From the NCBI GenBank assembly GCA_013538715.1, contig JACAFH010000005.1:1-64000 (forward strand): 64,000 nt of DNA, in the 5' to 3' direction. The DNA comes from Candidatus Nitrosothermus koennekei (GTDB lineage: Archaea > Thermoproteota > Nitrososphaeria > Nitrososphaerales > Nitrosocaldaceae). Position numbers and translations under genes: made by a program. Shown piece by piece: positions 413 to 21,609 of this stretch. The notes under the pieces were generated by a model that worked only from the letters and a program-made list of their open reading frames with translations, was not told the origin of the DNA and did no database searches. The first letter of the stretch is position 1, and the number at the start of each line of letters is the position of its first letter.

Positions 413-422
413 TTTTTAAATA
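413..422 (+). promoter_or_regulatory. TATA-like promoter of the dTMP kinase-like gene
   Basis: TTTTTAAATA lies about 26 bases upstream of the ATG at 444. That is the spacing expected for a leaderless or near-leaderless archaeal transcript. The same layout recurs before other element genes. Confidence 0.5.
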
Positions 423-443
423 AGTATATATTTTATATAAATT

Positions 444-3083: not shown

Positions 3084-3130
3084 ACAAAGTAATCTTACTG
3101 ATGTTTATTTATAACTTTAGAGTAGAAAAA

Positions 3131-3140
3131 AATTTAAATA
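3131..3140 (+). promoter_or_regulatory. TATA-like promoter of the first beta-helix gene
   Basis: AATTTAAATA, preceded by an A-run that could serve as BRE, is centred about 28 bases before the ATG at 3164. A leaderless transcript is likely. It lies in the 80-base divergent gap with the polymerase gene. Confidence 0.5.
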
Positions 3141-3163
3141 GATATAATACTTAATTATAACTA

Positions 3164-4723
3164 ATGCACTGGAAAATATTATTTTTAAGCTTATCTATAT
3201 TTATTATTAGTATTAGTATTGCATATAGTGCATATGTTGCTGTTCAAGTAAATAGTGATATTATTATTTACACAGATTCAGCAGGAACTTATTTTGCACA
3301 AAATGGTTATGATAATAAAATCATTACTAGCGGTAATGATTTTTCAGCTGTTATGAATACTGCTATTAGTAGTATACAACCACAAAAAACTATTTTTATT
3401 AAATCTGGAACATATGTAGTTAATTCATTAATTACTATTAATAAAAATATCAACATTGAAGGTGCTGGTAAAGAAAAAACTATTTTATCAGCTAATTCTG
3501 ATGTTTTTAATATAAATCCATCAAGTCCCAGTGTGTTAAAAATTAAAGGATTTCAAATAAGTTTTACTGGAACTAATGGTATAGGTATACAATTAAATAA
3601 TTTAGCAGAAGGAAGTGTACTTGAAGATATTAAAATATCAAAAGGAAATACAGGAATTGTAATTAATCAAGCATCGTTATCATTATTCAAAGATATATAT
3701 ATTGTAGACTTTAGTAACACAGGAATTTTCATGGACGGCGATAACGGGGCAGAAAATAGATTTGTTGATGTTACTATACAGTCTTTAAGTTCATCAAGTA
3801 ATAACCCATCGTATGGATTCAGATATATTAGAGACTCAAATTCAGCAGATATTGGTGGATTATATTTTGATCATGTTATTATTGGTGGTAATGGTAAATT
3901 AGCAAATGGAATTAGTTTAGAAAGTACATTAACAGGAGATCAAACACCAATTTATTTTTGGATGCGTGATAGTGTTATTGATGGTATAAAGACTAATGCT
4001 TTATATCTTCAAAATGTACGAGAACTTCAAATTTATGATAATTGGATAACAGCAATATCCGGAGGTATAGGTTTACATAGTAATGGAGCAGAAAAAATGT
4101 TCATTAATAACAATATTATCGTTGGTTATCCTGCAGTGAAATTAACTGGAGGTACATTTTTAACTGGACTTTCAAGATTTGTAGGAAATTGGTTTGAAAG
4201 TAATATTGCATCTAATACTTTTAAAACTGATAGCTTTGTAGCAAACAGTATTGCATTAGTTGATAATATGTTTTATCCATCTCCACCAAATATTTCTTTA
4301 CAGCAAGGTGCTGATAATTTTATTCCAATAACTAATGGTTTAACCGTTATTACTGATGCCGCTTCTCCACGTGAAACACTAAAAATTACTAATCCAACTA
4401 ATAATAATTCATTTTATTTAAGAAGTGGAACAAATGGAAAATTTGAGATATTAGATCAAACATTTTTCCCTGCATTATCAATTGCTCAAAATACATTCTT
4501 ACAAATAAGAGGTATTTATATGAATACTGTTTCTTCAAATACATTTACATTAAATCATAATTATGGTAGTACTGATTATATTGCGTTATTTAGTATAGTT
4601 ACATCTAATCCAGCAGATGGAGAATGTGTAATTAGTAATAAACAAGCTAATTCATTAACTTATACATGTACAACTTCTGCAACCAGAACATTTAACACAT
4701 TAATCTTAGGTTATCTTCCTTGA
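3164..4723 (+). CDS. Secreted pectate-lyase-like beta-helix protein
   Basis: 519 aa. A signal peptide or anchor (hydrophobic residues 4-24) is followed by a strand-rich body. NINIEGAGKEKTIL (about 101-114) and repeated short turns such as NRFVDVTIQS and MFINNNIIVG are typical of right-handed parallel beta-helices of the Pectate_lyase_3 type used by phage tailspikes. The last 100 residues form a separate small Ser/Thr/Asn-rich beta domain with two Cys (ECVIS, YTCTT). No pectate-lyase catalytic residues can be assigned. It is probably a virion-surface adhesin or glycan-binding spike. Its stop overlaps the TTG start of the next gene, so the two are probably co-translated. Confidence 0.7.
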   Translation: MHWKILFLSLSIFIISISIAYSAYVAVQVNSDIIIYTDSAGTYFAQNGYDNKIITSGNDFSAVMNTAISSIQPQKTIFIKSGTYVVNSLITINKNINIEGAGKEKTILSANSDVFNINPSSPSVLKIKGFQISFTGTNGIGIQLNNLAEGSVLEDIKISKGNTGIVINQASLSLFKDIYIVDFSNTGIFMDGDNGAENRFVDVTIQSLSSSSNNPSYGFRYIRDSNSADIGGLYFDHVIIGGNGKLANGISLESTLTGDQTPIYFWMRDSVIDGIKTNALYLQNVRELQIYDNWITAISGGIGLHSNGAEKMFINNNIIVGYPAVKLTGGTFLTGLSRFVGNWFESNIASNTFKTDSFVANSIALVDNMFYPSPPNISLQQGADNFIPITNGLTVITDAASPRETLKITNPTNNNSFYLRSGTNGKFEILDQTFFPALSIAQNTFLQIRGIYMNTVSSNTFTLNHNYGSTDYIALFSIVTSNPADGECVISNKQANSLTYTCTTSATRTFNTLILGYLP

Positions 4724-5658
4724 AACTATTATTTTTTTTACTTGTTTTGATTATACCAATTAGTTATGTGTATGCAGATCAAACTTATATATTTTTAATA
4801 CCAGAAAATAATAATTACCCATCATCTAATTGGTTAGTTGAATATACAAAACCTAATAATGTTATACAAATAGATCAACACCATGGGCAAGGTGGACAAC
4901 TATTTGATATTAAATTAAATACTGTAGTGAAAATATACCAGAACGCATCAAACACTTCACCAGATTTTTATTTTGTATTTAGTGATGGCACATCTATAAA
5001 AACATACACTTTTACTGGTAATAATGTGACTTATTTTTATAAAACAGTCTTTGGAAGCAATACATCTAATACAGGAAATAATACATCTGTAATTGGAACT
5101 AATTATTTTATTAAAGTAATTAAAAATAATCAAACTAAAAGTATAGAAGGTATTCTAGGATCTTTGTCTTTATCGAATAATCAAACATTTATGTATTCGA
5201 TATATGATTATTATAATTCTACAACATTTACCGGAAATGTAACATTAGTTAAAAACGTTTACACACCAATTTTATATGTTGGTAATAATATTTCTCATAA
5301 ATTCTTAGTAACACTTTACGATCAAAAATCTATTTATACATTTATACTTGAGGCTGATACATCTACACTAAATGCGTTAACATTTGTAACACGAATGATA
5401 ACTAATTTACTTATTCATATGTTCGGAAAAGAATCATTTTTACATACAATTATGATTATCTCGTTTTTATTTGTCGGATTAGATTTTTACTATAATAATC
5501 ATTTTGGTGTTATGTTAGCAAGTTTAATGGTTATCGTGCTAGTATTTTATAATGTTGAGTTATCACAATATAACATTTCACAACCTTCATTACCAGTAGC
5601 TGCTATTTTAAGTCTTGTAATATTTGTCGCTGTTCAATATCTTAAAAATGAAAGATAA
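4720..5658 (+). CDS. Signal-peptide membrane glycoprotein-like protein, unknown
   Basis: 312 aa, with a TTG start inside the previous stop codon. It has a signal peptide (residues 2-19, ending YVYA) and an ectodomain of about 220 residues rich in Asn and Thr with many N-x-S/T sequons. Three closely spaced hydrophobic helices sit at the C-terminus (about 243-260, 264-280, 290-307). It looks like an envelope protein anchored at its C-terminus. Coupling to the beta-helix gene suggests the two act together on the virion surface. I recognise no domain. Confidence 0.6.
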   Translation: MKLLFFLLVLIIPISYVYADQTYIFLIPENNNYPSSNWLVEYTKPNNVIQIDQHHGQGGQLFDIKLNTVVKIYQNASNTSPDFYFVFSDGTSIKTYTFTGNNVTYFYKTVFGSNTSNTGNNTSVIGTNYFIKVIKNNQTKSIEGILGSLSLSNNQTFMYSIYDYYNSTTFTGNVTLVKNVYTPILYVGNNISHKFLVTLYDQKSIYTFILEADTSTLNALTFVTRMITNLLIHMFGKESFLHTIMIISFLFVGLDFYYNNHFGVMLASLMVIVLVFYNVELSQYNISQPSLPVAAILSLVIFVAVQYLKNER

Positions 5659-6030
5659 TTACTTAAATGCTTTATATAATAAATAAAATGACATTGCAAT
5701 TAATAGAGCAACAGTAATCATAATTAATATTAATAAATCGTTATCAATGTTATAAGTAAATATATCATTTGATACAGAACTTGTTATAGTATTTGACAAA
5801 GTATTATATGTGATTTCAACAGATTTGATTTTATATATATAAGTATTGTTATATAAAAGCGATAAAGATGTTAGTACTGGTATTAATAATAAAACGAAAT
5901 AAATAAATCGTGTTTTATAAAGAACAAAAATTGTGACAGAGGATATTACAAATAATAATATTAAACTTATATTAATATCAATGACAGTTGTGTTACAAAA
6001 GATTGTTGTCGATGATTGAATGCAACTCAT
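5659..6030 (-). CDS. Small membrane protein, unknown
   Basis: 123 aa. It has two adjacent hydrophobic helices (about 20-38 and 42-60), a polar loop of about 40 residues with Asn/Thr, and a third helix near the C-terminus (about 99-118). The N-terminal 18 residues contain two Cys and N-x-T sequons, so this end may be outside the cell. It converges directly on the preceding gene with no gap. Function unknown; a structural envelope protein is possible. Confidence 0.5.
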   Translation of the reverse strand: MSCIQSSTTIFCNTTVIDINISLILLFVISSVTIFVLYKTRFIYFVLLLIPVLTSLSLLYNNTYIYKIKSVEITYNTLSNTITSSVSNDIFTYNIDNDLLILIMITVALLIAMSFYLLYKAFK

Positions 6031-6069
6031 CTAATATTCATATATTAATACTAAATAAAAAATGTTTCG

Positions 6070-6321
6070 TTAGATAACAGTAGTATAATCTTTGCCTATC
6101 AATAAAGTTTTTATTTTACATTTAGTGTTGTGTTCATCTATTATTTTACTGTTTTTATATGTTTTACATTGAATTAACAATATCTCTTTTCCTTTTATTG
6201 CAATTAAATCTAATGGTCCTTTTGATCCCGCAGATCGCAACACATAATAACCTTTTCCTTCCAAATATCTTTTAATTTTATATTCGAATGTTCTTCCTTT
6301 TAAATACGCTTTGTTAGCCAT
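6070..6321 (-). CDS. Hjc-like Holliday junction resolvase (short)
   Basis: 83 aa. It matches the core of archaeal Hjc nucleases (PD-(D/E)XK fold): KGRTFEYKIKRYLE with the N-terminal Glu, then RSAGSKGPLDLIAIKGKEIL with the metal-binding Asp, then IQCKTYK, where Q-x-K replaces the usual E-x-K. The AGSKGP-D-IA block is very characteristic. It is shorter than cellular Hjc (about 120-140 aa), ending just after the catalytic core. It would cut branched intermediates during replication or packaging. The promoter probably lies in the 38-base gap shared with the divergent gene. Confidence 0.75.
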   Translation of the reverse strand: MANKAYLKGRTFEYKIKRYLEGKGYYVLRSAGSKGPLDLIAIKGKEILLIQCKTYKNSKIIDEHNTKCKIKTLLIGKDYTTVI

Positions 6322-6359
6322 AAAAAATATTTAAGGTAAAGTATATATTATATGTTATT

Positions 6360-6569
6360 ATGAATAGGACAACTATACATCATATATTGTTTGGAATATG
6401 TGGTATGTTTTTAATTAGAATAAGTTTAATATTATTTATTAATGATTTATTTAATAATGATATTTCAATATATCTTATTTTCATTCCAATCACTTGTTTA
6501 ATTACTGGAAGTTACTTATTGTTTAAATGTTATAAATATTTTCTTCGTAAAATAATTACTAGACTATAA
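6360..6569 (+). CDS. Two-helix membrane protein, unknown
   Basis: 69 aa. Two hydrophobic helices (about 9-27 and 36-55) are followed by a short basic tail (KCYKYFLRKIITRL). It lies divergently to the resolvase gene and upstream of the large fibre gene. No family is recognised. Confidence 0.4.
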   Translation: MNRTTIHHILFGICGMFLIRISLILFINDLFNNDISIYLIFIPITCLITGSYLLFKCYKYFLRKIITRL

Positions 6570-6581
6570 TATCTTATAAAA

Positions 6582-6590
6582 GATTTAAAT
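6582..6590 (+). promoter_or_regulatory. TATA-like promoter of the large fibre gene
   Basis: GATTTAAAT lies about 31 bases upstream of the ATG at 6618, matching the layout before 444 and 3164. Confidence 0.45.
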
Positions 6591-6617
6591 GTAAGTTTTT
6601 CATAAATAATTACAAAT

Positions 6618-8681
6618 ATGAAGGAAGCGATGATCTATATTGTCACTGTGGCTATATCAGTTTATTTCTTAGTTGCATTAGTGTCGTCCTTAACAACTGG
6701 TGGAACAGCTGTACAAAGTTTGGATGATTTAGCAGATGTAATTATTAACTCTCCAACAAATTCTCAAGTATTAGCATTTATTAATGGGGCATGGAGAAAT
6801 AGTGATATTAATGGACTTATTAACAATTTACCATGGAATAAAGTTTCTAAAGTTGGTAGTACTATAAATGATATTGATAATGTAAATGCTAATCCAGCTA
6901 TTGGACAAGTCTTAGAATGGGATGGAACTCAATGGGTAGCTGGTAATGATGATACAACTAGTTTAACTGATAATAGTGTTTCTTCTAATCATATTGTAGA
7001 CAATACAATTATAAATTCAGATATTTCTTCAACAGCAAATATAGCATGGAATAAAATATCTAAAGTTGGTAGTACTATAAATGATATTGATAATGTAAAT
7101 GCTAATCCAACAGTTGGACAAGTTTTAGAGTGGGATGGAACTCAATGGGTAGCTGGTAATGATGATACAACTAGTAGTAGTGGTACTACATTAACTATGC
7201 CTGTAAGTGATGTAACATATTTAATATTTAGAAATACAACAGGATATTATGCTCGAAACACTGCAACAAATAATATAGATTACTCAGGTACAGATGCTGG
7301 AGCAGTTGTAACTAGTGCATTAAATAATGCTGGTGGAAACACAAAAATTGCTTTTGTTCCAACTACATCACATGATATATTTGTCTTTACAACACCTATT
7401 ATTATTCAATATGATAATATAGAGATAGATTGTAATGAAGCAACATTACAAGCGAATACTAATAATCTTAATATCATTTTAATAGATCCAATAGATACAG
7501 TAGCTCAACTTATTTATATACACGAATGTTCCTTTGACCTTAATAACAAACCTGGTGCTTCAGCAATTAATACAGTATTAACTTCTAGTGATCGTATATC
7601 TTGGATATATATAACACAAAATAACTTTATAAATATAGCAAGTGGAACAACTACACAATTATATATTAATTTAACAAATGAAGAAAACTTGATATCTGTT
7701 GATTCTAATAGATTTATTTCATTAGATGGTAGTAATACATTTGGTATTTTAATAGATGCTAATGGAGTAATTGGATCAAACACAAGAATCATTAATAATA
7801 TGTTTAGCGCTAAATCAAGTGCTACTGCCAGTTATCCAATTGTAATAAGACCTTCTTCAGCTACAGGTAATCAAGTTGGTAGAATTGCTATAGCATTTAA
7901 TCACTATTTTGTATTTACAAATTCACCTTCATCTGCAGACAATCCTTTTGTATTATATAATGGTGTAACTGGTACAACTAATGAACATAATAGAGGTATT
8001 GACATTTTATATAATCACTTAGAAAATTGTAATACATGTATTAAAATTATTGGAAACGGTAACGGTGGATATTTCAATATTATAGGAAATACATTTGAAT
8101 TATCACAAACATATAACTTTACAACTGGTAATAATTATGCAATTTATATAACTAATACAAGAAGTGGTGCTAAAATAATTGATAATGAATTTGATGTTAG
8201 AAGGGCTAATTATGTTGCTATACATAGTGAAAGTCCTAGACCTATCTTAATAGCAGAAAATACATATAGAACGAGAGAAGCATCCTATGCTTCTATCACA
8301 CCATATGAAATTACAGTTAATCCAGATGTTAATTTCAGATCTAGTTCATTTATTGATATAAATACAGAAACATTCATTAGAAACACAGGAAGTATTTCGT
8401 TAACAAAAGGTGTTATTAATTCACCATTTACTACAAGTGGTCTTGCGAGTATAGTGCCATGGGGAACAACTTCTACAATAACATCTGGAACAACTTATAC
8501 AGCACTATTCTTTACTTACTTTGTAAGTATCACTGGAGGTAGTGGTGTATCTATAACTATAGTTGATGCAAATAACACAACGATTGTTAGTAATGTCGCA
8601 ACTTATACTGGTATATTAAAACCAGGTTGGAAGATAACAGTAACTTATACAACTACACCAACAATAACAGTGGTAATATGA
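6618..8681 (+). CDS. Tail-fibre-like beta-helix adhesin with duplicated module
   Basis: 687 aa. It has an N-terminal signal anchor (residues 6-27). Two near-identical modules follow (about residues 73-115 and 144-186), each reading WNK(V/I)SKVGSTINDID and QVLEWDGTQWVAGNDD, joined by a linker (VDNTIINSDIS) of the kind found in phage fibre shafts. From about residue 195 on there is a long right-handed beta-helix with Asn-rich turns (NRFIS, NNMFSA, NTFELS). A Thr/Gly-rich C-terminal beta domain closes the protein. It is probably a trimeric receptor-binding fibre. Its stop overlaps the next start as ATGA. The exact module duplication suggests that shaft length varies by recombination. Confidence 0.7.
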   Translation: MKEAMIYIVTVAISVYFLVALVSSLTTGGTAVQSLDDLADVIINSPTNSQVLAFINGAWRNSDINGLINNLPWNKVSKVGSTINDIDNVNANPAIGQVLEWDGTQWVAGNDDTTSLTDNSVSSNHIVDNTIINSDISSTANIAWNKISKVGSTINDIDNVNANPTVGQVLEWDGTQWVAGNDDTTSSSGTTLTMPVSDVTYLIFRNTTGYYARNTATNNIDYSGTDAGAVVTSALNNAGGNTKIAFVPTTSHDIFVFTTPIIIQYDNIEIDCNEATLQANTNNLNIILIDPIDTVAQLIYIHECSFDLNNKPGASAINTVLTSSDRISWIYITQNNFINIASGTTTQLYINLTNEENLISVDSNRFISLDGSNTFGILIDANGVIGSNTRIINNMFSAKSSATASYPIVIRPSSATGNQVGRIAIAFNHYFVFTNSPSSADNPFVLYNGVTGTTNEHNRGIDILYNHLENCNTCIKIIGNGNGGYFNIIGNTFELSQTYNFTTGNNYAIYITNTRSGAKIIDNEFDVRRANYVAIHSESPRPILIAENTYRTREASYASITPYEITVNPDVNFRSSSFIDINTETFIRNTGSISLTKGVINSPFTTSGLASIVPWGTTSTITSGTTYTALFFTYFVSITGGSGVSITIVDANNTTIVSNVATYTGILKPGWKITVTYTTTPTITVVI
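6834..7175 (+). repeat. In-gene 129-bp direct repeat in the fibre gene
   Basis: Copies lie at 6834-6962 and 7047-7175, each 129 bp, differing at a few positions (for example AAAGTTTCT against AAAATATCT, and GCTATT against ACAGTT). They encode the two fibre modules. Near identity at DNA level in a fast-evolving gene points to recent duplication or gene conversion. Confidence 0.85.
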
Positions 8682-10354
8682 AGTATATTTTTTTTACAAT
8701 ATTCTTCATGTTCTTTTTTATTTTAGTAAATATAAAAGAGACATATGCTACTAAAATTAATATCTTAGTTGTACGAGATAATATTCCTTCAAAATTAATT
8801 GCTATCTTTAATAATTATAGACATGACTATGTAGTTGGTTTTTCAGGATTAAATACATTAAATGAGATTAACCAAATTAATACTGGTATAAAAGTCATAA
8901 ATTATTTTAATGCATCACAGATAATTCAAGAAATACCTAATTTACGAGCAAATGGTATTTCTTGGGTGTCATATGACTTAGAAAATAATTATTCTCCATC
9001 AAATGAAGTAAATGATCCGATTAATACAATAAAAAATCTATATAATAATCTTAGAGCAAATAACATGAATCTGATGTTAACTATAACTAACATACCTAAT
9101 CTTTACAATGTTACTAGACAAGTAGCAAATTATAGTCAGATATTCATAATACAAGGACAAAGTTTTCAAGCAACAAATGCAGATCAATATGCAAAAAAAG
9201 TAAAAGAGTTATATGATTATATATTAGCAGATAGTAAGAACATCAATGTTTTATATGTATCTCAGACTTCTTTACTGCAAGGCGATATATATAATACAAA
9301 GTTATCACATCATAAAACATTAACATTTTTGGATGGCGGAACATTATTTTATGATAGTAATACATCATATAATGATATTATTAGTTATTACGACTGGTTT
9401 ATGAGTAATTATAAGAAATCATCAACTACTTATTATGTTAGTACATCTGGTAATGATAATAATGACGGAAGTGAAATATCACCTTTTGCAACATTTAACA
9501 AGGCACTAAATACAGCTAAATGTGGTGATACAATAGTTATTAAACCAGGAACATATAATCAAGAATTAAATACTGTAAAAGATGCTTGTAAAGATTTTCC
9601 AATTAAAATTACTGGATATGGTGCAATAATAAAAGGGACAACAACATCAACCTATATCTCTAGAATTTATCATGATCATTATATATTAGAGGGTATGGAA
9701 TTTGATGGTACTCAAGGTAGCAATTATGTTAATAAAGGTATAAGAATTGAAAATGTGACGAATATTATCATACAAAATATAAAAATGCATAATATAGGTG
9801 ATGAAGGAATAAGGATAGTTAGATCTAGTGATATTACAATTCAAAATAACGAATTATATGATTTTGGGTTAGATCAGCTTCCAAGTGCAATAAACGGCGA
9901 AGCAATATACATAGGCACAGCACCAGAACAAAATAATGGTGTAGCAGATACAAGCAATAACATTTTAATAACATCTAACAATTGCTATGGACAAAGTACT
10001 GAATGTGTAGATGTAAAAGAGAATTCTACTAATGTATTAATACAATATAATACATTTAGAGAGTCTGACGATGCAAATTCTGGAATCATAGATATAAGAG
10101 GTAATCTTAATTTTATTATTAAAAATATTCTTAAAAATGGCTTAGGCGCTGGATTAAGGTTAGGTGGAGATACAGCAACTGATGGTATAAACAATACAAT
10201 AAAACATAATTACTTTGTTAATAATGCTATAGGCATTAAATTTATGTCACACCCACAAACCATAGTTTGTGGTAATAAATTTTCTAGTAATACACAAGAT
10301 AAATCAGGAACATATGCAAGTAACTATGATGTATACGCAATATGTCCTGCATAA
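8678..10354 (+). CDS. Secreted protein with unknown N-domain and DUF1565-like beta-helix
   Basis: Start placed at the ATG that forms an ATGA overlap with the fibre stop; an upstream in-frame ATG at 8627 would put the signal peptide internal. 558 aa. The signal peptide occupies residues 2-24 (ending TYA). Residues about 25-255 have alternating strand and helix segments (INILVVRD, GISWVSYDLENN, NMNLMLTITN, INVLYVSQTS) and could be a TIM-barrel or glycosidase-like domain. Residues about 260-558 start with YYVSTSGNDNNDGS, the usual opening of DUF1565/right-handed beta-helix proteins, and continue with NIIIQNIKMHNI-type rungs. It may bind or cut host surface glycans. Confidence 0.65.
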   Translation: MKYIFFTIFFMFFFILVNIKETYATKINILVVRDNIPSKLIAIFNNYRHDYVVGFSGLNTLNEINQINTGIKVINYFNASQIIQEIPNLRANGISWVSYDLENNYSPSNEVNDPINTIKNLYNNLRANNMNLMLTITNIPNLYNVTRQVANYSQIFIIQGQSFQATNADQYAKKVKELYDYILADSKNINVLYVSQTSLLQGDIYNTKLSHHKTLTFLDGGTLFYDSNTSYNDIISYYDWFMSNYKKSSTTYYVSTSGNDNNDGSEISPFATFNKALNTAKCGDTIVIKPGTYNQELNTVKDACKDFPIKITGYGAIIKGTTTSTYISRIYHDHYILEGMEFDGTQGSNYVNKGIRIENVTNIIIQNIKMHNIGDEGIRIVRSSDITIQNNELYDFGLDQLPSAINGEAIYIGTAPEQNNGVADTSNNILITSNNCYGQSTECVDVKENSTNVLIQYNTFRESDDANSGIIDIRGNLNFIIKNILKNGLGAGLRLGGDTATDGINNTIKHNYFVNNAIGIKFMSHPQTIVCGNKFSSNTQDKSGTYASNYDVYAICPA

Positions 10355-10386
10355 TATTTTTATTTAATTTCTTAAAATAGATAATT

Positions 10387-11100
10387 ATGGAATCTCTATG
10401 GAATCAATCATTTAAAAAAGGTAAAGGTGTTAACATAGAACCTTCATTATGTTTATACACTCCAGAACAAGTATATCATGCATTAAAACAAAATGATAAT
10501 ATCGTATCATGGCTTAATTTTATATCTAATATTTATACACCATCTAAACAATATGATATACTATTGATATATCCATGTTCTGCAGATAAACCGTATTATA
10601 AGTCGAGAAGTTATAAGGCATTATACAAAACGTTAAATTCAATAGCAGATCGTGAGAATAGAATACATTTAATAACGATCTCAGAACCTTATGCACTTAT
10701 ACCAGAAGAATTTTACTATAGCAAAACAGAATGGTATGATTGCCCAGGTTTGTTTGAGTGGTTTTGTAGAAAGCATAAACTCAATTATAATCAAGAAATT
10801 GTAGATTATTGTATTGATATATTAGCTAGTGCTATCACAAAATTTCTAAAGAGAAATATAAGTAATTATAAAACAATAATTGCATGTGTTAGAACATATA
10901 CATCACAACTTGCTTCTAAACATGATCATACACATAAAAGAATGTTAGATATTGTTAACAAAGAAGTAGATAATAAAATAGAGATTATACCTCCAGCAGA
11001 AGTTATATCAACAATAAATAAATTTGCATGGGATAGATATGGAGTATCTCATCCTATAGTTCAAAGTTATTTATACCATGAAATTATAAAAAGATTATAA
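10387..11100 (+). CDS. ArcS-like DUF5591-domain protein
   Basis: 237 aa. IYPCSADKPYYKSRSYKALY (61-80) matches the PCS-x-x-KPY-x-S signature of the DUF5591 domain of archaeosine synthase (ArcS). ISEPYALIPEEF (98-109) followed by WYDCPG (116-121) matches the later conserved blocks (P-x-x-x-VP-x-E, YD-x-P-x-x-G). ArcS adds an amino group source to preQ0 in tRNA; viral relatives occur beside DpdA-type DNA transglycosylases. The other ArcS domains (TGT-like catalytic fold, PUA) are absent. Convergent with, and overlapping by six bases, the TGT-like gene. I infer a role in making or tailoring 7-deazaguanine in element DNA. Confidence 0.7.
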   Translation: MESLWNQSFKKGKGVNIEPSLCLYTPEQVYHALKQNDNIVSWLNFISNIYTPSKQYDILLIYPCSADKPYYKSRSYKALYKTLNSIADRENRIHLITISEPYALIPEEFYYSKTEWYDCPGLFEWFCRKHKLNYNQEIVDYCIDILASAITKFLKRNISNYKTIIACVRTYTSQLASKHDHTHKRMLDIVNKEVDNKIEIIPPAEVISTINKFAWDRYGVSHPIVQSYLYHEIIKRL

Positions 11101-12114
11101 AGTAGTGTTATGTTTTAACATCTTAGCATATTTCCATAGATAATTGAATGATGATCTTGCAAATATATTATCTAGATATTTTTCATATTTATCTAATCCA
11201 GATTCTAAGTATTCCTTAGCAATTTGAGATTCCATTTTTATTGTATACTCATTATGTATAGCTCTTGCCTTAAAATCTTTCCAAAGATTTTTAAAATCAA
11301 CAGAACATACACTACATTTACACTGCAATAATTTCTCCATATCTTCTGCTCTTAAATCTCCTTTTACTCGACCAAATGTTGCTTGCATATTACCAACATA
11401 ACGTTCTCCAGTGCCTTGAAGTATAATTTTACCATAGGCTGCTTTCCGCCTATAACCAGCAGAGTCAATACTAGAGATACCAAGATAATATGCTAAATGT
11501 AGAGTTAAAGGTGATGATCCAATACCCATCATATGTACTTTAAAATCTGTAAGTTGATGAATATATTTAACCGATATATTAATCATCTCTAGTAAAGTAC
11601 GATTAAAATGTCTATCACCAAATAGATGTTTACTAGAAATAAATGTATTATCATGTATAATACTACCTATCGCAATATATTCTGCATCTGCTTTGCTTTG
11701 TAACCATTTAATATTATTTTTTAATGATTCTTTATTCCATGCATGTAATGATGGTACAAGTTTTCCGTTTAATCTAGTAGATGATTGCCAATATAAAATA
11801 TTTTCTTGCGTTTTATTCCATGAATCAATCATTTCTTTGAGTGTATGAATATACCTAGAAAAAGGATAATCTAAAGGAATTGTTTTATCAGGATTTAATT
11901 GTTCTTGAATATAAACAACTCTATCTTTATTTAATGCTTTATTATGTGTACTAGCTGTAAAAGCACCATTATCAAGAAATAATTTTAAAGGTTTATAAGA
12001 TAACTTAATATTCTTATTATTGTAATAATTTATAACTGAGTCCATAACATAATCATGAGATCTATCATATTTCACAGGATTTTTATTCTCTCCGATCCAT
12101 AATAAAGTATCCAT
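11095..12114 (-). CDS. TGT-superfamily transglycosylase, DpdA-like
   Basis: 339 aa. TGT-fold landmarks: LDNGAF at 47-52 (Asp48, equivalent of the SDSGGFQ Asp), PLDYP (80-84), MMGIGSSPL (195-203), and SIDSAGYRRKAAYG (215-228), whose Asp217 is the candidate nucleophile and is followed by the Arg-rich patch. The zinc site is C265-x-C267-x2-C270 with His287, the CxCxxC...H layout of the family. No PUA domain follows, unlike archaeal tRNA TGT. DpdA proteins of phages exchange guanine for a 7-deazaguanine in DNA and have this short form. Next to the ArcS-like gene, a DNA target is more likely than tRNA; an RNA target cannot be excluded. PreQ0 synthesis genes are not seen, so the precursor would come from the host. 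Confidence 0.75.
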   Translation of the reverse strand: MDTLLWIGENKNPVKYDRSHDYVMDSVINYYNNKNIKLSYKPLKLFLDNGAFTASTHNKALNKDRVVYIQEQLNPDKTIPLDYPFSRYIHTLKEMIDSWNKTQENILYWQSSTRLNGKLVPSLHAWNKESLKNNIKWLQSKADAEYIAIGSIIHDNTFISSKHLFGDRHFNRTLLEMINISVKYIHQLTDFKVHMMGIGSSPLTLHLAYYLGISSIDSAGYRRKAAYGKIILQGTGERYVGNMQATFGRVKGDLRAEDMEKLLQCKCSVCSVDFKNLWKDFKARAIHNEYTIKMESQIAKEYLESGLDKYEKYLDNIFARSSFNYLWKYAKMLKHNTTL

Positions 12115-12150
12115 AAATTATGTAAATTAATATATATGATATATACTTTT

Positions 12151-14377
12151 TTATTCTATATTAATTCTTTGTCTTGTTTTTTCAAGAGAAATGATATCTC
12201 TTTTTCTACCAGATTTTATTAAACGGTTATGTACAAGAGTTATAAAATCAATATATAATTGCTCTAATAAATTATTTATTTCATCTTCTGAAAATCCTAA
12301 AGCATGTAAAACAGCTATATCTAATTCTCGTCTATTTATATCATTTACTTCATTATAATATACTTGTGATTGTCTATTTAGTAGTTTATTCATATCATAA
12401 TCTATTCTATCTATTATATCTAAAGAAGGTACAGGAAAAATATTATAATCAATAACTTCACATTCACCAACTCCACCACCTAATCTTCTGCTATATAATT
12501 CCATAGTTAAATAGAAGATTGTTGAATTTAAGTATAACCATAACTTTTCAGGATTAGATGTATATACTAATATAAAACTATTATCAGAAATTATCGGTTT
12601 AACAGAAAATGGAATATAAATATGTTCACGCCAAAAATGAGGTAAAAATATATGAGCAGGTTTCATTAGATGTAACTGATACCATTTGGTTTTTTTATTA
12701 CTAAATTTATTATGATATCCAACAATTTTTTCGTGTGTAAAACGATTAATTATAACCTTATTTTCATATTCTTTAATATATTTATGAATATATTCAGATT
12801 CAGATATTATATCATCTGAAATATATAAACAATATGTTGTTAGTTTCTTTATTTGATATGAATGATTTAATTCTCTTGGTGTACGTAATATTGGTATTAA
12901 ATATTTTTTCTCAATAAAGAATTTATATTTATCTTCATTACATACATATACTAATTCATCATGATTTTTTAAAATTTTCATATAAAAAAACTTATTACCA
13001 TTTGTACGTAAACCACTACGCAACAAAACAATATCATCTAATCTATGTGTTAACTTTGATTGAATCTTATCTCATATTAATGGTAGATGTAAGTAAAACC
13101 ATTTACCGCTTTGTAACTTTAATTTGTTAATAACATAAATATTTAATATTGATAACTTCATATAATCATCAAATAGAATAAACATAATATTATCACTAAT
13201 ATCTTTTTTAGAATATAAAACAATAATCGCATTGATATCAAGATCAAAAGATCTTATTTTTTTACCATAGATAGCTATTATATATTTTTTAAGTATAGAT
13301 TGTAATGTAATTCCATAACCAGTTTCTAACCATTTATCAGAAGTGATAACACAGATAACACCATTATCATCAATTAAATCAAGAACACGAATCATAAAAT
13401 AACAATATAAATCTGATCTTGTACTTAAGTTATATTCATTATATAAATCAGCATATTCTTGTTTTTTATCCTTAGGTATATATTCATGTCGTATATAAGG
13501 AGGATTCATTAAAATTATATCGGCTTTTTTTTCGTAAATATTGTTGTATTAGATCTTTATCTTTTCTTAATAATGAATCATTTATTTTATATATGTTAAA
13601 AGGTATTTGATAATTAAAACATGAATTATTAAGTAAAAACAAGAATAACCTTAATTTAGTAATAAAAATTGCATAATCATCAATGTCAAAACCATATATA
13701 TTATAAACTAAGGTATGTATTATTTTAGTATAATCAAACTGATTATTTAAACAAAATTTACTTAATAAAGATAATATTACATTAAGCATAATAATCATTA
13801 AATTACCTGTTCCAACAGCTGGATCGAGAATAACAATATCAGATAATTTTTTTATAAGTTCATTATCAGTTAAATTATTAAATTCGTTATAAAAAATATA
13901 TTTATTATCTAATTTTTCTATTTTATCTTGTTTATTTAGATAATAAACAAGAGCCCTTTGACACATAAATATCTGTTCTTCTAATTGTGTATAATATGCT
14001 CCATTTATTGTTTTTTCATAATCTTCTTTAAAGTATTCATGTAATTGGCTAAATATTGAAGGATCAATAAATTCTTCACATTGTTTTAAAGATTCTGTAA
14101 GTGTAAAATTATAGTTATTTAAACACATACATATTTGATTAAATATATTATCATCAAGATTGACATTAAATATATAACAACGTAAATCTGGTGGTAATAA
14201 TTTTTCTAAGAATTGTATCACGTCACTATAATGAAAGCAATTTGTATTAAATTTTGATTTAAGAAAATAATATAATAATATATTCATCATAATAGCTTTT
14301 AAGTGTAATATATTATATTTTGTCATCAATGTTTGATATAGATGTTTATATTCTTTAATAAAAGTAGTATATAGCAT
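12151..14377 (-). pseudogene. Disrupted Eco57I/PglX-like N6-adenine DNA methyltransferase
   Basis: One methyltransferase split in three. Part 1 (14377-13484): helical N-domain, GAYYTQLEEQ (motif X region, residues 126-135), ILDPAVGTGNLMI (motif I, 183-195), YGFDIDDYA (motif II). Part 2 begins inside the motif IV block: ADIILMNPPYIRHEY is rebuilt if the 8-base A run at 13532-13525 loses one base. Part 3 follows an in-frame TGA at 13074-13072; the frame stays open across it through RSGLRTNGNKFFY to the target-recognition region ending at 12151. So there is one frameshift and one stop. The C-terminal HALGFSEDEI is typical of the family. Causes could be decay, phase variation at the A run, or sequencing error. 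No restriction gene is recognised nearby. Confidence 0.8.
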
Positions 14378-14410
14378 ATTAAAAAAATATAAAAAGGTAA
14401 TATATATATT

Positions 14411-14812
14411 TTATGTGGCAATAGTTCCTTGCTGGTCTAGATCTTCAATAATACCTTGTCTCTTTGCTTCATTAATATCCATTAGAATAAATCTATAATA
14501 TCGCTCATTCGGTTTTTTATCTACAACCATTAGCACTGTATCGTTTTGTTTATATCTAGTAATTTTGTCTCGTAAAGCAGCATATTGAACGTTTAATGTA
14601 TAGTATTTCTCAGATAATGAAGGATTTGACTCTATTACTTGAATATCTACAACATCTTGTGATGTTAGCATTTTTCCCGTTCTTGGTATATGTCTTACGT
14701 CACTTAACAGTTTAAACACTATCCAACCTCTGAATTCAGACAGCTTTAAGAATGGATAGAGTGTCTTTTTTACATCTATTCGATCTATGTTTATTCTCAT
14801 AATGTTATACAT
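14411..14812 (-). CDS. Hypothetical soluble protein
   Basis: 133 aa, or 129 aa if the second ATG at 14800 is used. It is a mixed alpha/beta protein without membrane segments. Short strands (RGWIVFKLL, VVDIQVIES, DTVLMVVDK, RYYRFILMD) could form a small barrel, and the C-terminus is acidic (EDLDQQG). A nucleic-acid-binding barrel is possible but not shown. It lies upstream of the broken methyltransferase on the same strand and divergent from 14883. Confidence 0.5.
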   Translation of the reverse strand: MYNIMRINIDRIDVKKTLYPFLKLSEFRGWIVFKLLSDVRHIPRTGKMLTSQDVVDIQVIESNPSLSEKYYTLNVQYAALRDKITRYKQNDTVLMVVDKKPNERYYRFILMDINEAKRQGIIEDLDQQGTIAT

Positions 14813-14882
14813 ACAATGTATATAATATATACTCTTTTTTAAACAAAACTTTTATATCTTAGTTTATAGTAATTTATGCATA

Positions 14883-15566
14883 ATGGATATTGTAGAATTA
14901 GCATTAAAATATATTCAAGAAGGTAAAAGCTACCAAGAAGCATATCAACTTGCAAAAAAAGAACTTAAAGTAGAAGTTAAACCAAAGACAGAAGATAGAA
15001 AGATCAAAAAAAGTCAGTTAATGTTATCTTTATCATTGCCAAAAATGCTATATCACTGGAAATTAATAGTTGATAATGTTCAAAATAAAGAATTACAAAC
15101 AATAGCTTATGCACTTGCTATTTATCCAGCTCGCCCGAAAAGTTTTATTATATGTGATAAATCTATAAAACAAGACAATCTTTACATTTCTATAGCTAAA
15201 ATTAAACGAAATATTAATTATATTATACTTCCAAGACCTTTACCTCTTCCTTTATCAATGAATTATTCAACCTTTAAAGTCTCTCTAGCTAAATTATATG
15301 CAAAATTAGTTAAAAATGCTGATCTAGCTACTAATGTATCTTATGTAAAAAATATATTTAGACACGCATATATTAAATATTTTTATGATGTATATAAATT
15401 TGATTTAACATATTTAGATCAAAATCTTCTGCAACATGCAAATAAAAGTAATATAAAATATTATTTTGAATTTGATATTGAAAAATTCATGAAAGAGACG
15501 TTTATTCCAAAAATGCTAGAAATGCCTGAATATAAAGCAATATGGGATGTGATAAAATATGACTAA
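14883..15566 (+). CDS. Hypothetical soluble protein, first of the ATPase gene run
   Basis: 227 aa, no signal peptide or membrane segment. The N-terminal 25 residues form an amphipathic helix (ALKYIQEGKSYQEAYQLAKK), followed by a charged linker and a mostly helical body rich in Tyr and Lys. A TATA-like ACTTTTATAT lies about 30 bases before the ATG. Its stop overlaps the next start by eight bases. It opens a run of four overlapping genes that ends with the P-loop ATPase, so a virion-assembly role is possible. No family recognised. Confidence 0.5.
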   Translation: MDIVELALKYIQEGKSYQEAYQLAKKELKVEVKPKTEDRKIKKSQLMLSLSLPKMLYHWKLIVDNVQNKELQTIAYALAIYPARPKSFIICDKSIKQDNLYISIAKIKRNINYIILPRPLPLPLSMNYSTFKVSLAKLYAKLVKNADLATNVSYVKNIFRHAYIKYFYDVYKFDLTYLDQNLLQHANKSNIKYYFEFDIEKFMKETFIPKMLEMPEYKAIWDVIKYD

Positions 15567-16047
15567 TGATAATACAGCTATTGTTGAAGGTTTAAGAAAT
15601 AGTATTTATTTTGAGACTAGTACACATATTTTAACACCACGAACGATTACATGGGCAATAAAAAGAATAGATTTAATTAATAGATTAATATCTTTTGCAG
15701 AAATAAAAGATATAACACAAACTGATAAACGCGTTAATCTTAAGGACATTGTAAAAGAGCCCCCAAAAAGAGATGATTATGAGACAGAAGAAGAATATAA
15801 TCGTGCATATAATGACTATCAAATGATACGTTCTGCTTTAAATTTAAGCGCTGGAGAACACCTTTATATTGATATTTTAGATTATGAATATATTTTAAGA
15901 TTAATTAATGAAATGAAAGAAATCTTAGCACTTGTTAGTGCTAAGAATGGAGCTAAATTACATACATTAATGACAACCAATATTCAAAGCGTTAAAAAAT
16001 TTGAGACACCATTTGCTAGACTATTTGGACACAGTGGTGAACCATGA
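15559..16047 (+). CDS. Hypothetical soluble protein, second of the ATPase gene run
   Basis: 162 aa. It is mostly helical and charged, with a central KEPPKRDDYETEEEYNRAYND segment that looks like an exposed linker between two helical regions. There are no Cys and no membrane segment. It overlaps the genes on both sides (8 and 4 bases), which suggests coupled translation. No family recognised. Confidence 0.5.
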   Translation: MTNDNTAIVEGLRNSIYFETSTHILTPRTITWAIKRIDLINRLISFAEIKDITQTDKRVNLKDIVKEPPKRDDYETEEEYNRAYNDYQMIRSALNLSAGEHLYIDILDYEYILRLINEMKEILALVSAKNGAKLHTLMTTNIQSVKKFETPFARLFGHSGEP

Positions 16048-16973
16048 TAATAGCAATTATCTATCTTATTATGCTTGGATCATTTGATAATATCATATAC
16101 AGTTATGAATTATCGAATTTAGACTGTACTAATTATACTGAAATGACTCGTTATGAAATATATAATGTATCAGATTGTATAACATATGTTAATGCTGCTA
16201 AAGTACAGTTACTTGCATATATAGCAAGTAATATGTTAACAAGTGTAGACATAGCATCCTATCTTATTCTTGTAAAAAAAGCAATAAATCCATTTATATT
16301 AAAGAATAAAAATATTGTCTTGATTATAAGTGATAAATTAGAAATAGCACTATCTGAATATGTTCCTATTATTGTTCACAAGAAAAATGCATATTTTACA
16401 CGACAATGGTATAAAGATGAACTTAGAAATAATCATTTACAAATTTATGTAAAAGGACGCTATCAACCTCTAGGTTATAAAGATAGAACAAATATTGTCA
16501 CAATTTTAAACTATAATAAATATATGATGAAAGTAAGTAAAACAAAAAGAGTAACATCATATAATATATTCAAATTAGGACATTTTAAGCGTAATTGGAT
16601 ATTAGAAATCAATCCTATTCAACATACATATATTATTCGCTCAGTAAAGAAATTAGATCCTAGTCTTCCATCATTCAAATTTGGTTTATGGAAACGACTA
16701 CAAATTATAGTACCACATTTAAATGAAACTCAAGAACTACATACTGAAAGTAGTAGTATAAATTCTATTTTAATGCAGAAAGTAAAAATTAATGTAAGAG
16801 AAGTAACATTAGATGAGAGTAGTGCATATTTATACTCTTTATTACAAGCTGTTTTAAAAGACGCTGAAGATAAACAGAAATTACTAGAAATAAGTTTTCC
16901 AATCAAGTGGATATTCATAGCGTTAATAGTATTTATAGCAATTTTCATGATGATGCTACAATGGAGTATATAA
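16044..16973 (+). CDS. Membrane protein with N-terminal signal and C-terminal anchor
   Basis: 309 aa. It has a hydrophobic N-terminus (residues 1-22) and a strong C-terminal helix (about 289-306). Between them is a domain of about 260 residues with two early Cys (DCTNY, DCITY) and several basic stretches. The layout is a type I surface protein or a signal-anchored virion protein. It starts four bases inside the previous gene and overlaps the ATPase start. Co-transcription with an ATPase suggests envelope or assembly function. No family recognised. Confidence 0.5.
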   Translation: MIIAIIYLIMLGSFDNIIYSYELSNLDCTNYTEMTRYEIYNVSDCITYVNAAKVQLLAYIASNMLTSVDIASYLILVKKAINPFILKNKNIVLIISDKLEIALSEYVPIIVHKKNAYFTRQWYKDELRNNHLQIYVKGRYQPLGYKDRTNIVTILNYNKYMMKVSKTKRVTSYNIFKLGHFKRNWILEINPIQHTYIIRSVKKLDPSLPSFKFGLWKRLQIIVPHLNETQELHTESSSINSILMQKVKINVREVTLDESSAYLYSLLQAVLKDAEDKQKLLEISFPIKWIFIALIVFIAIFMMMLQWSI

Positions 16974-17725
16974 CATCTAGAGCTTTTAATTTACTATCAA
17001 ATTATAAGAGTAAAAGTACTAACATTGAATACTTAACTTTACCCACTGTTACTAGTTTAATTTCAGATAATATCATAACAAGTCTAGAAAAGTATAATTT
17101 TTTCAGTATTTATATAGTTGGAATAATGGGTAGTGGAAAGACTACATTAACACGGTATATATCTAATGAAATACAACCATTAATGTTGCAGAAAAAATGG
17201 AAAATTAATTATATTAACGTTGAACTAAGAGATGATGAGGATAACGAAAATTATCTATCTAATATGTTAGCAATAGCATATAAAGACGGAGAACATAAAA
17301 ACGTTGATGTTCATATTGTAGTTATTGATGATGCCAGTTATTTCTTTTCCTCACCAACAAAATCAACACAAAGATCTAAACGTGATTACACATTAATAAG
17401 ACATATCTTTGAAGATAAAAAAGTACTCGTTATGATAGTTGGTCATCTTTTAACAGCAGTACCACCTATACTAAGAGCTTCAAATATATCATTATATACT
17501 ACACCGCCTATTAGTTATGCACAAGAATTATCTAAATTAATCATTGCACCATTAAAACAACAATTTAATTTTAAATTAAATATGTTTCAAAAAATAGTTA
17601 CGGACGGTAAATACGAAAGAGAAGAAAACAATACTAAGAAAATCATAGTATTAAAGTCAGATGAACGTCCTGTTCTTCTTGTAAAAACAGATGCTGTTAA
17701 TGTATGTAAGTTTATGAAAATATAA
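16961..17725 (+). CDS. P-loop ATPase, candidate assembly or packaging motor
   Basis: 254 aa from the ATG at 16961, chosen over 16907 because it cuts the overlap with the previous gene to 13 bases. YIVGIMGSGKTTLTRYIS is a clean Walker A; HIVVIDDASYFF about 110 residues later is the Walker B. A polar segment (IVGHLLTAVPP) after it could hold the sensor residue. Size and motif spacing fit the small FtsK/HerA-like or Zot-like ATPases of archaeal viruses, but the arginine finger is not obvious. No membrane segment. It is followed by a palindromic terminator and the convergent capsid-like gene. DNA packaging or virion budding is the likely role by context. Confidence 0.7.
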   Translation: MEYITSRAFNLLSNYKSKSTNIEYLTLPTVTSLISDNIITSLEKYNFFSIYIVGIMGSGKTTLTRYISNEIQPLMLQKKWKINYINVELRDDEDNENYLSNMLAIAYKDGEHKNVDVHIVVIDDASYFFSSPTKSTQRSKRDYTLIRHIFEDKKVLVMIVGHLLTAVPPILRASNISLYTTPPISYAQELSKLIIAPLKQQFNFKLNMFQKIVTDGKYEREENNTKKIIVLKSDERPVLLVKTDAVNVCKFMKI

Positions 17726-17751
17726 AAAAAATATTATATTTTTTATATTTT
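17717..17751. terminator. Bidirectional terminator between convergent genes
   Basis: A perfect 13-bp inverted repeat (AAAATATAAAAAA at 17717-17729 and TTTTTTATATTTT at 17739-17751) has a 9-base loop. It covers the ATPase stop and the capsid-like stop and gives a T-run on either strand, as archaeal termination needs. Confidence 0.6.
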
Positions 17752-18013
17752 AACTCGACCAGTTTCTGACGTAAGCGAATAAGATTGTTGCTGCTGCTAA
17801 AATAGGCAATATAATTATAAGTATGCCACCAAATTTACTGAATATATCACATCCTTGTCTCAATGCTTGTTGTATACTATTTTCATTTGTACCTTGTGCT
17901 GGACAAGCAAAGTTTGATCCCATGATATTATATAGTTGTGCTAGTATAGTTACTGCAACAATAATGGCGACAGAGACGATCACTACAGTCATGACACTTT
18001 GCATTGTGACCAT
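17750..18013 (-). CDS. Candidate major capsid protein, two-helix spindle-virus type
   Basis: 87 aa. Two long hydrophobic helices (about residues 5-30 and 58-82) flank a polar loop of about 28 residues with two Cys (FACPAQ, GCDIF). Spindle-shaped viruses (Fuselloviridae, Halspiviridae, Thaspiviridae) use small capsid proteins with exactly this two-hairpin-helix layout. It sits between the ATPase and the large virion-like gene, where a highly expressed structural gene would be expected. Helix content is rich in Ile/Val/Ala as in that group. An ATG at residue 4 is an alternative start. A holin or pilin-like protein is the main alternative. Confidence 0.6.
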   Translation of the reverse strand: MVTMQSVMTVVIVSVAIIVAVTILAQLYNIMGSNFACPAQGTNENSIQQALRQGCDIFSKFGGILIIILPILAAATILFAYVRNWSS

Positions 18014-18073
18014 ATATTAGTATTATATATGTATTTCTTCTATTTATATATTTAGATAAAATTTAATAAAAAG

Positions 18074-18214
18074 TTAAAAAAGCAATTCAAATTTAGGTTT
18101 GTTTTCTTGTGTTAACTTATATTTTCTTCTATGTTTTTTATACGGTCCACGTGGACCTCGTCTTTTCTTCAAGAGTAGAATCGTCGGATCTTTTAATGAC
18201 CAAATTTCACCCAT
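18074..18214 (-). CDS. 46-aa basic protein
   Basis: It begins MGEIWSLKDPTILLLKKRRG and has a strongly basic centre (KKRRGPRGPYKKHRRKYK), so nucleic-acid binding is likely. It ends in KPKFELLF, similar to the EFLF end of the 874-aa protein encoded just upstream. A TATA-like TATTTAAAT precedes it by about 25-30 bases. It may be a DNA-condensing virion protein, comparable in role to the small basic VP2 of SSV1, with no sequence claim made. Confidence 0.55.
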   Translation of the reverse strand: MGEIWSLKDPTILLLKKRRGPRGPYKKHRRKYKLTQENKPKFELLF

Positions 18215-18253
18215 TTAAATATATTATATAATAATACATTTAAATACTTTTCT

Positions 18254-20878: not shown

Positions 20879-20915
20879 AAATATATATAGGATTATCTCA
20901 TATATAAAAATAAAT

Positions 20916-21206
20916 ATGTCTGGATTTCATATAACAGTATTCTTAGAAGTACTAAACTTATATCGACTACATATGTCACAAGGAGATAGTAAAGCTGCAA
21001 TTATTATTTTAAATACATATGTTAATCAATATCTTAAAAATAATATAGTTATCAATAATCTAATGCCTGAACATGAAAAGCTTGAAAAACTGTTTTCAGC
21101 CTTATTTAGTACATTACGAGATATAACATCATCATATGCTCGCTCTGATGAAAAGAAACTAGATAGTATTGATGAAATAAAAATTAAAGATGTTTATAAT
21201 GCGTAA
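20916..21206 (+). CDS. Small helical protein, unknown
   Basis: 96 aa, predicted almost all helical, with Leu-rich heptads in the first 50 residues and a charged C-terminus (ARSDEKKLDSIDEIKIKD). It shares a 37-base AT-rich divergent promoter region with the 874-aa gene and overlaps the next, convergent gene by 13 bases. It could be a dimeric regulator or a scaffold; neither is shown. Confidence 0.5.
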   Translation: MSGFHITVFLEVLNLYRLHMSQGDSKAAIIILNTYVNQYLKNNIVINNLMPEHEKLEKLFSALFSTLRDITSSYARSDEKKLDSIDEIKIKDVYNA

Positions 21207-21583
21207 CCGAGAATATGAAAGACAGCCATATCAATTTTATTTCTTTCATGGGCTGCATAATCTAAAGATAGAAGTAACATGTCTATAGGCACGGGTTCAG
21301 AGTGAAACAGATCAATAAAGTTACATTGATTATAGTACCTAAGGTAAGAATATATCGTAGGTTTCTGAAAATCGAATATTGATGCTGTTGCTGTTTTGTA
21401 ATCAATTACATACTCCTTATCGTTTATCGCATTTATTAATGTTTCTCCTACAAATGTTGTAATATTATAAGATAATGTTACTGGCTGAAAAGATAATTTT
21501 AAATCAAACTGTTCATCATTCATTACACGCTGATAACCTTCGGATGTAAACGCATAATTAATTACTTCTTGTATTGTTGCCAT
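21194..21583 (-). CDS. Hypothetical soluble protein
   Basis: 129 aa without membrane segments. A short N-terminal helix (IQEVINYAFTSEGYQRVM) is followed by strand-rich sequence, then a helical end (DMLLLSLDYAAHERNKIDMAVFHIL). The latter recalls the helical end of the broken methyltransferase (DIAVLHALGF) only superficially. It is the most downstream gene of the minus-strand membrane cassette. No family recognised. Confidence 0.45.
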   Translation of the reverse strand: MATIQEVINYAFTSEGYQRVMNDEQFDLKLSFQPVTLSYNITTFVGETLINAINDKEYVIDYKTATASIFDFQKPTIYSYLRYYNQCNFIDLFHSEPVPIDMLLLSLDYAAHERNKIDMAVFHILGYAL

Positions 21584-21609
21584 AAATATACATGGTTGTT
21601 ATGTTATAT

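What the first reader, a model, noticed from the sequence alone, without database searches (positions are those of the whole stretch)
10387..12114. Two-gene module suggesting 7-deazaguanine modification of viral DNA
An ArcS-like DUF5591 protein (PCS-x-x-KPY and YDCPG blocks) sits tail to tail with a short TGT-family enzyme that keeps Asp48, Asp217 and the CxCxxC...H zinc site but lacks a PUA domain. Known phages use DpdA plus ArcS/Gat-QueC type enzymes to put preQ0 derivatives into DNA and escape restriction. A minimal DpdA-ArcS pair in a spindle-type archaeal virus would be new to my knowledge. The host must supply preQ0.
Basis: partly seen in the sequence, partly recalled or inferred. Interest (0 to 1): 0.8.

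Follow-up and report, generated by a model that had tools for sequence, protein, structure and literature searches.

The report
Viral gene pair for modified guanine
A virus-like element in the genome of an archaeon carries two enzymes that probably swap guanines in its DNA for a chemically altered base made by the host; the same two-gene pair was already present in known Sulfolobus spindle viruses, but this version is closest to genes found inside what look like archaeal defence clusters.

Summary
Window 11095-12114(-) encodes a 339-aa TGT-fold enzyme and 10387-11100(+) a 237-aa ArcS-core (DUF5591) protein, tail to tail, inside an AT-rich virus-like element (about 1-25.6 kb).

The DNA-modification reading is supported by inference. 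The enzyme matches the phage DpdA family best (phrog_887), has the DpdA-type His124 where every tRNA TGT aligned here has Gln, and lies outside the arcTGT clade. The host already has its own arcTGT and a complete-looking preQ0 pathway.

The novelty claim fails as stated: spindle viruses STSV1, STSV2 and STSV4 already carry adjacent DpdA-ArcS genes, and all 10 sampled loci of one archaeal family (Sulfolobaceae by inference) carry both genes close together.

What is new here is where this version belongs. It sits in a six-member clade of DpdA that keeps the TGT zinc site. In all five non-viral members the DpdA gene is followed directly by a PCNA-like sliding-clamp gene. Two then carry ArcS and HerA genes. 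Two others carry DpdJ-like helicase and DpdK-like PLD genes, resembling the bacterial Dpd restriction system. The element thus appears to hold only the modification half.

Product and DNA substrate are untested; spindle morphology is unconfirmed.

The parts
11095..12114 (-). DpdA-like transglycosylase, 339 aa, zinc-bearing clade; general-acid D48, nucleophile D217, DpdA-type H124, Zn ligands C265 C267 C270 H287
10387..11100 (+). ArcS catalytic-core (DUF5591) protein, 237 aa, motif P63-C64-x3-K68-P69-Y70-x2-S73-x2-Y76, YDCPG block
12151..14377 (-). Eco57I/MmeI-like DNA methyltransferase directly upstream of and co-directional with the DpdA gene, interrupted in this assembly (ORFs 14377-13484, 13509-13072 and 13026-12151: a frame change and several in-frame stops); possible partner or decayed neighbour
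1..25600 (.). AT-rich virus-like element that carries the pair: PolB-like ORF 984-3083(-), beta-helix proteins, AAA ATPase 16907-17725(+), small two-TM protein 17750-18013(-), ribonucleotide reductase 22913-25447(+); left end is the contig end, with tandem repeats; right boundary approximate

Best explanation
The two genes are the modification half of a 7-deazaguanine DNA-modification system carried by an archaeal virus-like element. The host makes preQ0. The DpdA-like enzyme uses the TGT chemistry (Asp217 attacks the sugar, guanine leaves, preQ0 enters, Asp48 assists) but on DNA. The ArcS-core protein then acts on the nitrile of the inserted preQ0, giving a lysine adduct or archaeosine-like amidine. 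The modified DNA resists host nucleases, possibly including host clusters of the same family that use a clamp-bound DpdA to mark self. Shown: the genes, the motifs, the family placement, the kin in clamp-, HerA- and DpdJ/DpdK-containing clusters, and the host preQ0 genes. Inferred: the DNA substrate, the order of reactions, the chemical product and the protective role.
For: Best profile match is the phage DpdA family phrog_887, a family that matches phages 9g, CAjan and 7-11, STSV1 and SIRV10 and none of 14 control genomes. H124 is shared with phage and archaeal DpdA, while all 14 arcTGTs and E. coli TGT have Gln there. The host has a separate full-length arcTGT and QueC, FolE, QueD-like and QueE-like genes. 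All 5 nearest kin have a PCNA-like gene right after DpdA, and phages 9g, MMDA13 and Ssp-JY38 have a beta-clamp-type gene next to DpdA (annotated in the latter two; read from sequence for 9g): two different clamp families beside DpdA point to DNA. Two kin add DpdJ-like helicase (E down to 5e-43) and DpdK-like PLD (E=2e-10). ArcS and DpdA occur together in 30 of 38 small-ArcS genomes; of the other 360 genomes 40 have DpdA (genomes not independent). The closest ArcS kin (40-42% identity) lie in DpdA-PCNA-ArcS-HerA operons. T. kodakarensis ArcS accepts a free preQ0 nucleoside, so tRNA is not required (PMC11298593).
Against: No measurement of modified bases exists for this element. The element has no PCNA-like gene and no RaSEA was noticed in it; the host has only two sub-cut-off RaSEA-like matches, and T. 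kodakarensis ArcS is inactive without RaSEA. The final His of the ArcS motif is Tyr here. The position of the zinc clade between arcTGT and the other DpdAs is unresolved: holding the window protein with arcTGT is not rejected (AU p=0.064). PADLOC Dpd models do not detect the enzyme or its kin. Structure models are poor (pLDDT 50 and 65).
Confidence: 0.7

Rival explanations
1. The pair modifies RNA: the short TGT inserts preQ0 in a tRNA or rRNA site of the host and the ArcS core completes it, helping viral translation.
For: The TGT fold and zinc site are those of tRNA enzymes; the NCBIfam arcTGT model matches (E=3e-7, far below cut-off); archaeosine chemistry is native to archaeal tRNA; small ArcS proteins also sit beside RaSEA genes in other archaea of this order, a setting that fits tRNA archaeosine synthesis; the tree does not exclude a position next to arcTGT.
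Against: DpdA-type His124 instead of Gln; no tRNA-binding C-terminal domains; host arcTGT already present; kin sit with PCNA-like, HerA, DpdJ-like and DpdK-like genes; S. acidocaldarius, one of three species whose tRNAs were mapped in a study that treats G+15 as a hallmark of archaeal tRNAs (PMC7668247), rings for neither phrog_887 nor DUF5591.
Confidence: 0.17
2. The genes are cargo that no longer works: captured from a host defence cluster and decaying, like the interrupted methyltransferase next to them.
For: The neighbouring Eco57I-like gene is broken by a frame change and in-frame stops; the clamp, HerA and helicase genes of the source cluster are missing.
Against: Both ORFs are full length with all catalytic residues seen in kin and have the codon composition of the element (third-position GC 0.13-0.14 against 0.25 in a host gene), so they have been resident and kept open.
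Confidence: 0.08
3. The pair belongs to a host defence island that happens to lie inside the contig next to viral genes, not to the virus.
For: All five nearest kin are non-viral records, in clusters with defence-like genes; the element has no detectable viral relatives.
Against: The pair is in the middle of the AT-rich block between viral-type genes, shares its third-position GC, lacks the restriction genes, and no other sampled genome of the host order has this enzyme (250 genomes); STSV and SIRV viruses carry homologues as viral genes.
Confidence: 0.05

Closest known systems
STSV1 ORF18-ORF19, STSV2_15-16 and STSV4 ORF10-ORF9 (large Sulfolobus spindle viruses)
   Same: Adjacent DpdA-like enzyme (266-291 aa annotated) and small ArcS-core protein (185-190 aa) with the PC-x3-KPY motif, in archaeal spindle viruses
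   Different: Same strand and overlapping, not tail to tail; no zinc site in the enzyme; only about 25% identity to the window enzyme; they branch with the chromosomal enzymes of one archaeal family, Sulfolobaceae by inference
Phage DpdA (Enterobacteria phage 9g, CAjan, MMDA13; phrog_887)
   Same: Catalytic aspartates, the DpdA-type histidine, overall size of about 300 aa, best profile match
   Different: About 20% identity; no zinc site in the phage enzymes; these phages encode the preQ0 pathway themselves
Bacterial Dpd restriction-modification system (DpdA-DpdK)
   Same: Kin clusters in archaea have DpdJ-like helicase and DpdK-like PLD genes beside the enzyme
   Different: The window has only the modification genes; PADLOC Dpd models do not detect the enzyme; the archaeal clusters have a PCNA-like clamp gene
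Archaeosine synthase ArcS (with RaSEA) of tRNA
   Same: DUF5591 core with PC-x3-KPY; profile matches NF053620 and NF040592
   Different: Only the core (237 aa against 515-575 model positions), no RaSEA gene noticed in the element, Tyr in place of the motif's last His
Archaeal tRNA transglycosylase arcTGT (TgtA)
   Same: Fold, two aspartates, CxCxxC...H zinc site
   Different: No C-terminal domains, Gln replaced by His124, separate clade

Membership tests
DpdA (phage type, phrog_887) | Profile match better than to tRNA TGT families | tested here: met
   phrog_887 E=2.1e-11, 44 bits, against Pfam TGT 30 bits and NCBIfam arcTGT 29 bits
DpdA (phage type, phrog_887) | Catalytic aspartates and the DpdA-type conserved histidine (a conserved His, numbered 196, is noted for DpdA in PMC6884629; identity with H124 is my inference) | tested here: met
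   D48, D217, H124 aligned with 9g, CAjan, STSV, SIRV
DpdA (phage type, phrog_887) | Clade separate from arcTGT | tested here: met
   arcTGT one side of a branch 100/100, window in a 6-row zinc clade 99/99; forcing it with arcTGT p-AU 0.064, so not decisive alone
DpdA (phage type, phrog_887) | Inserts a 7-deazaguanine into DNA | not testable with these tools
   needs LC-MS/MS or in vitro exchange
tRNA TGT / arcTGT | VQGG-type Gln in the substrate pocket and, for arcTGT, the C-terminal region with PUA | tested here: not met
   VPSLHAW at 120-126; 339 aa, no C-terminal domains
ArcS (archaeosine synthase) | DUF5591 core with PC-x3-KPY-x2-S-x2-H (motif recalled from the ArcS literature) | tested here: inconclusive
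   PCSADKPYYKSRSY: all but the last His, which is Tyr here and in the two nearest kin
ArcS (archaeosine synthase) | Full-length match to the ArcS equivalog models | tested here: not met
   49 bits against a cut-off of 600, and 46 against 440; core only
Bacterial Dpd system | DpdA with DpdB/C and restriction genes DpdD-DpdK in one cluster | tested here: not met
   No such genes seen beside the window pair; DpdJ- and DpdK-like genes only in kin L111/L132 and L129
Spindle-shaped virus (Thaspiviridae or Bicaudaviridae) | Homologous capsid or replication genes | tested here: inconclusive
   No tblastn match of PolB-like, AAA or small TM protein in phage records

The most novel reading that the evidence does not exclude
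Thermoproteota carry an undescribed DNA-marking and restriction system in which a zinc-bearing DpdA acts with its own PCNA-like clamp (and, in one form, ArcS and HerA; in another, DpdJ-like helicase and DpdK-like PLD nuclease). This virus-like element carries its modification half, without clamp or RaSEA, so that its DNA bears a preQ0-lysine or other new deazaguanine and passes as self.
Probability: 0.3. Interest if true: 0.82.

Novelty: new variant of a known kind. Interest (0 to 1): 0.6.

Why it matters
Deazaguanine DNA marking is known from phages, a haloarchaeal virus and bacterial Dpd clusters. The evidence here suggests a separate archaeal branch: a DpdA that still keeps the tRNA-enzyme zinc site, encoded next to a dedicated sliding clamp in chromosomes, and without the clamp in a virus-like element. 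It gives a testable account of how a virus could borrow the self mark of a host restriction system. It also makes a concrete question testable: what does an ArcS do on DNA when no RaSEA is nearby? A preQ0-lysine DNA base would be new as far as I know.

Tried and rejected
Novelty of the pair in spindle viruses: rejected after STSV1/2/4. SIRV10 as a second tail-to-tail pair: rejected, its ORF44 is not an ArcS. PCNA-like gene inside the element: sought, not found (best E=0.03). Relatives in IMG/VR by protein or alignment: none. Relatives of the enzyme in the host order: only arcTGTs. PADLOC hit for bacterial DpdA: none. STSV methyltransferase as homologue of the broken methyltransferase: no similarity. 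Structure prediction: low confidence; Foldseek finds only TGTs among the 50 best for P0001, but with E above 0.001, and nothing useful for P0002. Papers: the STSV1 paper and the 2023 phage deazaguanine paper are not held; no held paper has DpdA, PCNA and archaea together.

Full report
1. What is there. The window is the first 64 kb of a 116.6-kb contig of a 1.46-Mb archaeal genome. The first 25-26 kb are 22-28% GC and carry virus-type genes; beyond that GC rises to about 32% with ordinary host genes. In the AT-rich block, 11095-12114(-) and 10387-11100(+) encode the two proteins named in the finding. Both ORFs are intact, overlap by 6 bp at their 3' ends, and have the third-position GC of the element (0.14 and 0.13; PolB-like ORF 0.14; host gene 0.25).

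2. The enzyme. P0001 matches Pfam TGT (E=2.9e-7), but its best match is PHROG 887 (E=2.1e-11), which also matches DpdA of phages 9g, CAjan and 7-11 and the enzymes of STSV1 and SIRV10, and none of 14 control genomes. An alignment shows D48 and D217 at the two catalytic aspartates. At the position where E. coli TGT and all 14 archaeal arcTGTs have Gln, P0001 and the phage and archaeal DpdAs have His (H124); only two remote chromosomal proteins lack it. It keeps CxCxxC...H, which the phage 9g, STSV and SIRV enzymes lack. A tree of the core without the zinc columns puts it in a clade of six zinc-bearing enzymes (99/99), with arcTGTs on one side of another branch (100/100). The order of the deep branches is open: holding the window enzyme with arcTGT is not rejected (p-AU 0.064).

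3. The partner. P0002 is an ArcS core: DUF5591 E=1.4e-12 and partial matches to the archaeosine synthase models. It has PC-x3-KPY-x2-S. The last His of the motif, as I recall it from the ArcS literature, is Tyr in P0002 and in its two closest kin, whereas STSV and Sulfolobaceae-type partners keep His. T. kodakarensis ArcS transfers lysine to preQ0 even in a free nucleoside but needs RaSEA to be active, while M. jannaschii ArcS is reported to use ammonium, Asn or Gln (PMC11298593). So the product here may be a lysine adduct or an amidine; this is open.

4. The pair is not new to spindle viruses. STSV1 ORF18/19, STSV2_15/16 and STSV4 ORF10/9 are adjacent DpdA-ArcS pairs. Hutinet et al. 2019 (PMC6884629) list 2 Bicaudaviridae and 12 Ligamenvirales among viruses with such genes and suggest host-supplied precursors. 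From memory, not checked (paper not held), the STSV1 report (Xiang 2005) describes its DNA as unusually modified.

In one family, Sulfolobaceae by inference, all 10 sampled loci have ArcS near DpdA, three with HerA next; in another family six sampled loci have DpdA beside HerA (L098, L099, L100, L106, L121, L122). Small ArcS genes occur in 38 of the 398 genomes, 30 of them with DpdA, while 40 of the other 360 genomes have DpdA (Fisher p=9e-19, uncorrected for relatedness; small = open frame under 300 aa, from the listed matches). Some small ArcS genes sit beside RaSEA instead, so the domain also serves other pathways.

6. The nearest kin. Five loci have enzymes 48-53% identical. In every one the next gene encodes a PCNA-like protein (Pfam PCNA_N above cut-off for L111, L119 and L129; weak Hus1/Rad9/PCNA matches for L130; L113 only by a profile built here that includes it, i.e. 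by similarity to the others). L113/L131 and L130 continue with ArcS (40-42% identical to P0002) and HerA. L111/L132 and L129 continue with an AAA protein, an unknown, a DpdJ-like helicase (E 2e-41 and 5e-43), a further gene (with an MrfA Zn-binding match in L129) and a DpdK-like PLD protein. L119/L133 has AAA and HerA genes. L129 is titled Thaumarchaeota archaeon Centralia_MAG_53 and L130 Desulfurococcales archaeon AUK150. In phages 9g, MMDA13 and Ssp-JY38, DpdA lies beside a beta-clamp-type gene. A clamp next to DpdA in both worlds, from different clamp families, is the strongest hint that the substrate is DNA. BRIGADE, a Dpd-like class with a predicted deazaguanine cluster, is described only from haloarchaea (PMC12458937); no PCNA is mentioned in that text.

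7. Host supply. The host has QueC-QueE-FolE genes in a row at contig 30, about 64.5-66.5 kb, and QueD with a second QueC and an asparagine-synthase-like gene on contig 18; QueC and FolE pass curated cut-offs, QueE and QueD are best matches below NCBIfam cut-offs. It has one full-length arcTGT, no QueF, and two RaSEA matches below cut-off.

8. Limits. The host order lacks close relatives of the enzyme and of the PolB-like gene, and no viral contig relative was found, so there is no comparison of elements with and without the pair. Morphology is unknown. The methyltransferase upstream is broken in this assembly; it was not mended. All chemistry is inference.

Noticed in passing
window 12151-14377: Eco57I/MmeI-like methyltransferase in three ORFs: a frame change near an A-run at about 13500 and several in-frame stops at 13026-13072. 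Decay or assembly error.
   Followed up: partly
window 1-330: The contig begins with about three copies of a 38-bp repeat followed by a tandem repeat of about 18 bp (TTTCAAAAATGTCTAAAA type); may be the true end of the element or an assembly stop.
   Followed up: partly
window 984-3083: 699-aa ORF with polymerase-B-like motifs read by eye (DFNSLFP, KLFLNISYGKL, ATDSIF) but no Pfam, PHROG, PDB, phage, IMG/VR or host-order relative.
   Followed up: partly
window 3164-4723, 6618-8681, 8627-10354: Large proteins, two with beta-helix or pectate-lyase-like matches, perhaps virion surface or host-glycan acting proteins.
   Followed up: no
window 22913-25447: Complete ribonucleotide reductase large chain at the right end of the AT-rich block, with an element-like third-position GC.
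   Followed up: no
L049:6616-9159: Host QueD beside a second QueC and an asparagine-synthase-like gene: possible split Gat-QueC type archaeosine synthesis in a host without QueF.
   Followed up: partly
L017:1315-2789 and similar loci of family f13: A 247-aa ArcS core overlapping a 244-aa RaSEA-like gene: a minimal two-gene archaeosine synthase in relatives of the host.
   Followed up: partly
L111:6499-7560, L119:6256-7293, L129:9983-11014: C-termini of the zinc DpdAs end in RISQLLF, RISQVLF or RISEYLV, which might be a clamp-binding motif; the window enzyme ends without it.
   Followed up: no
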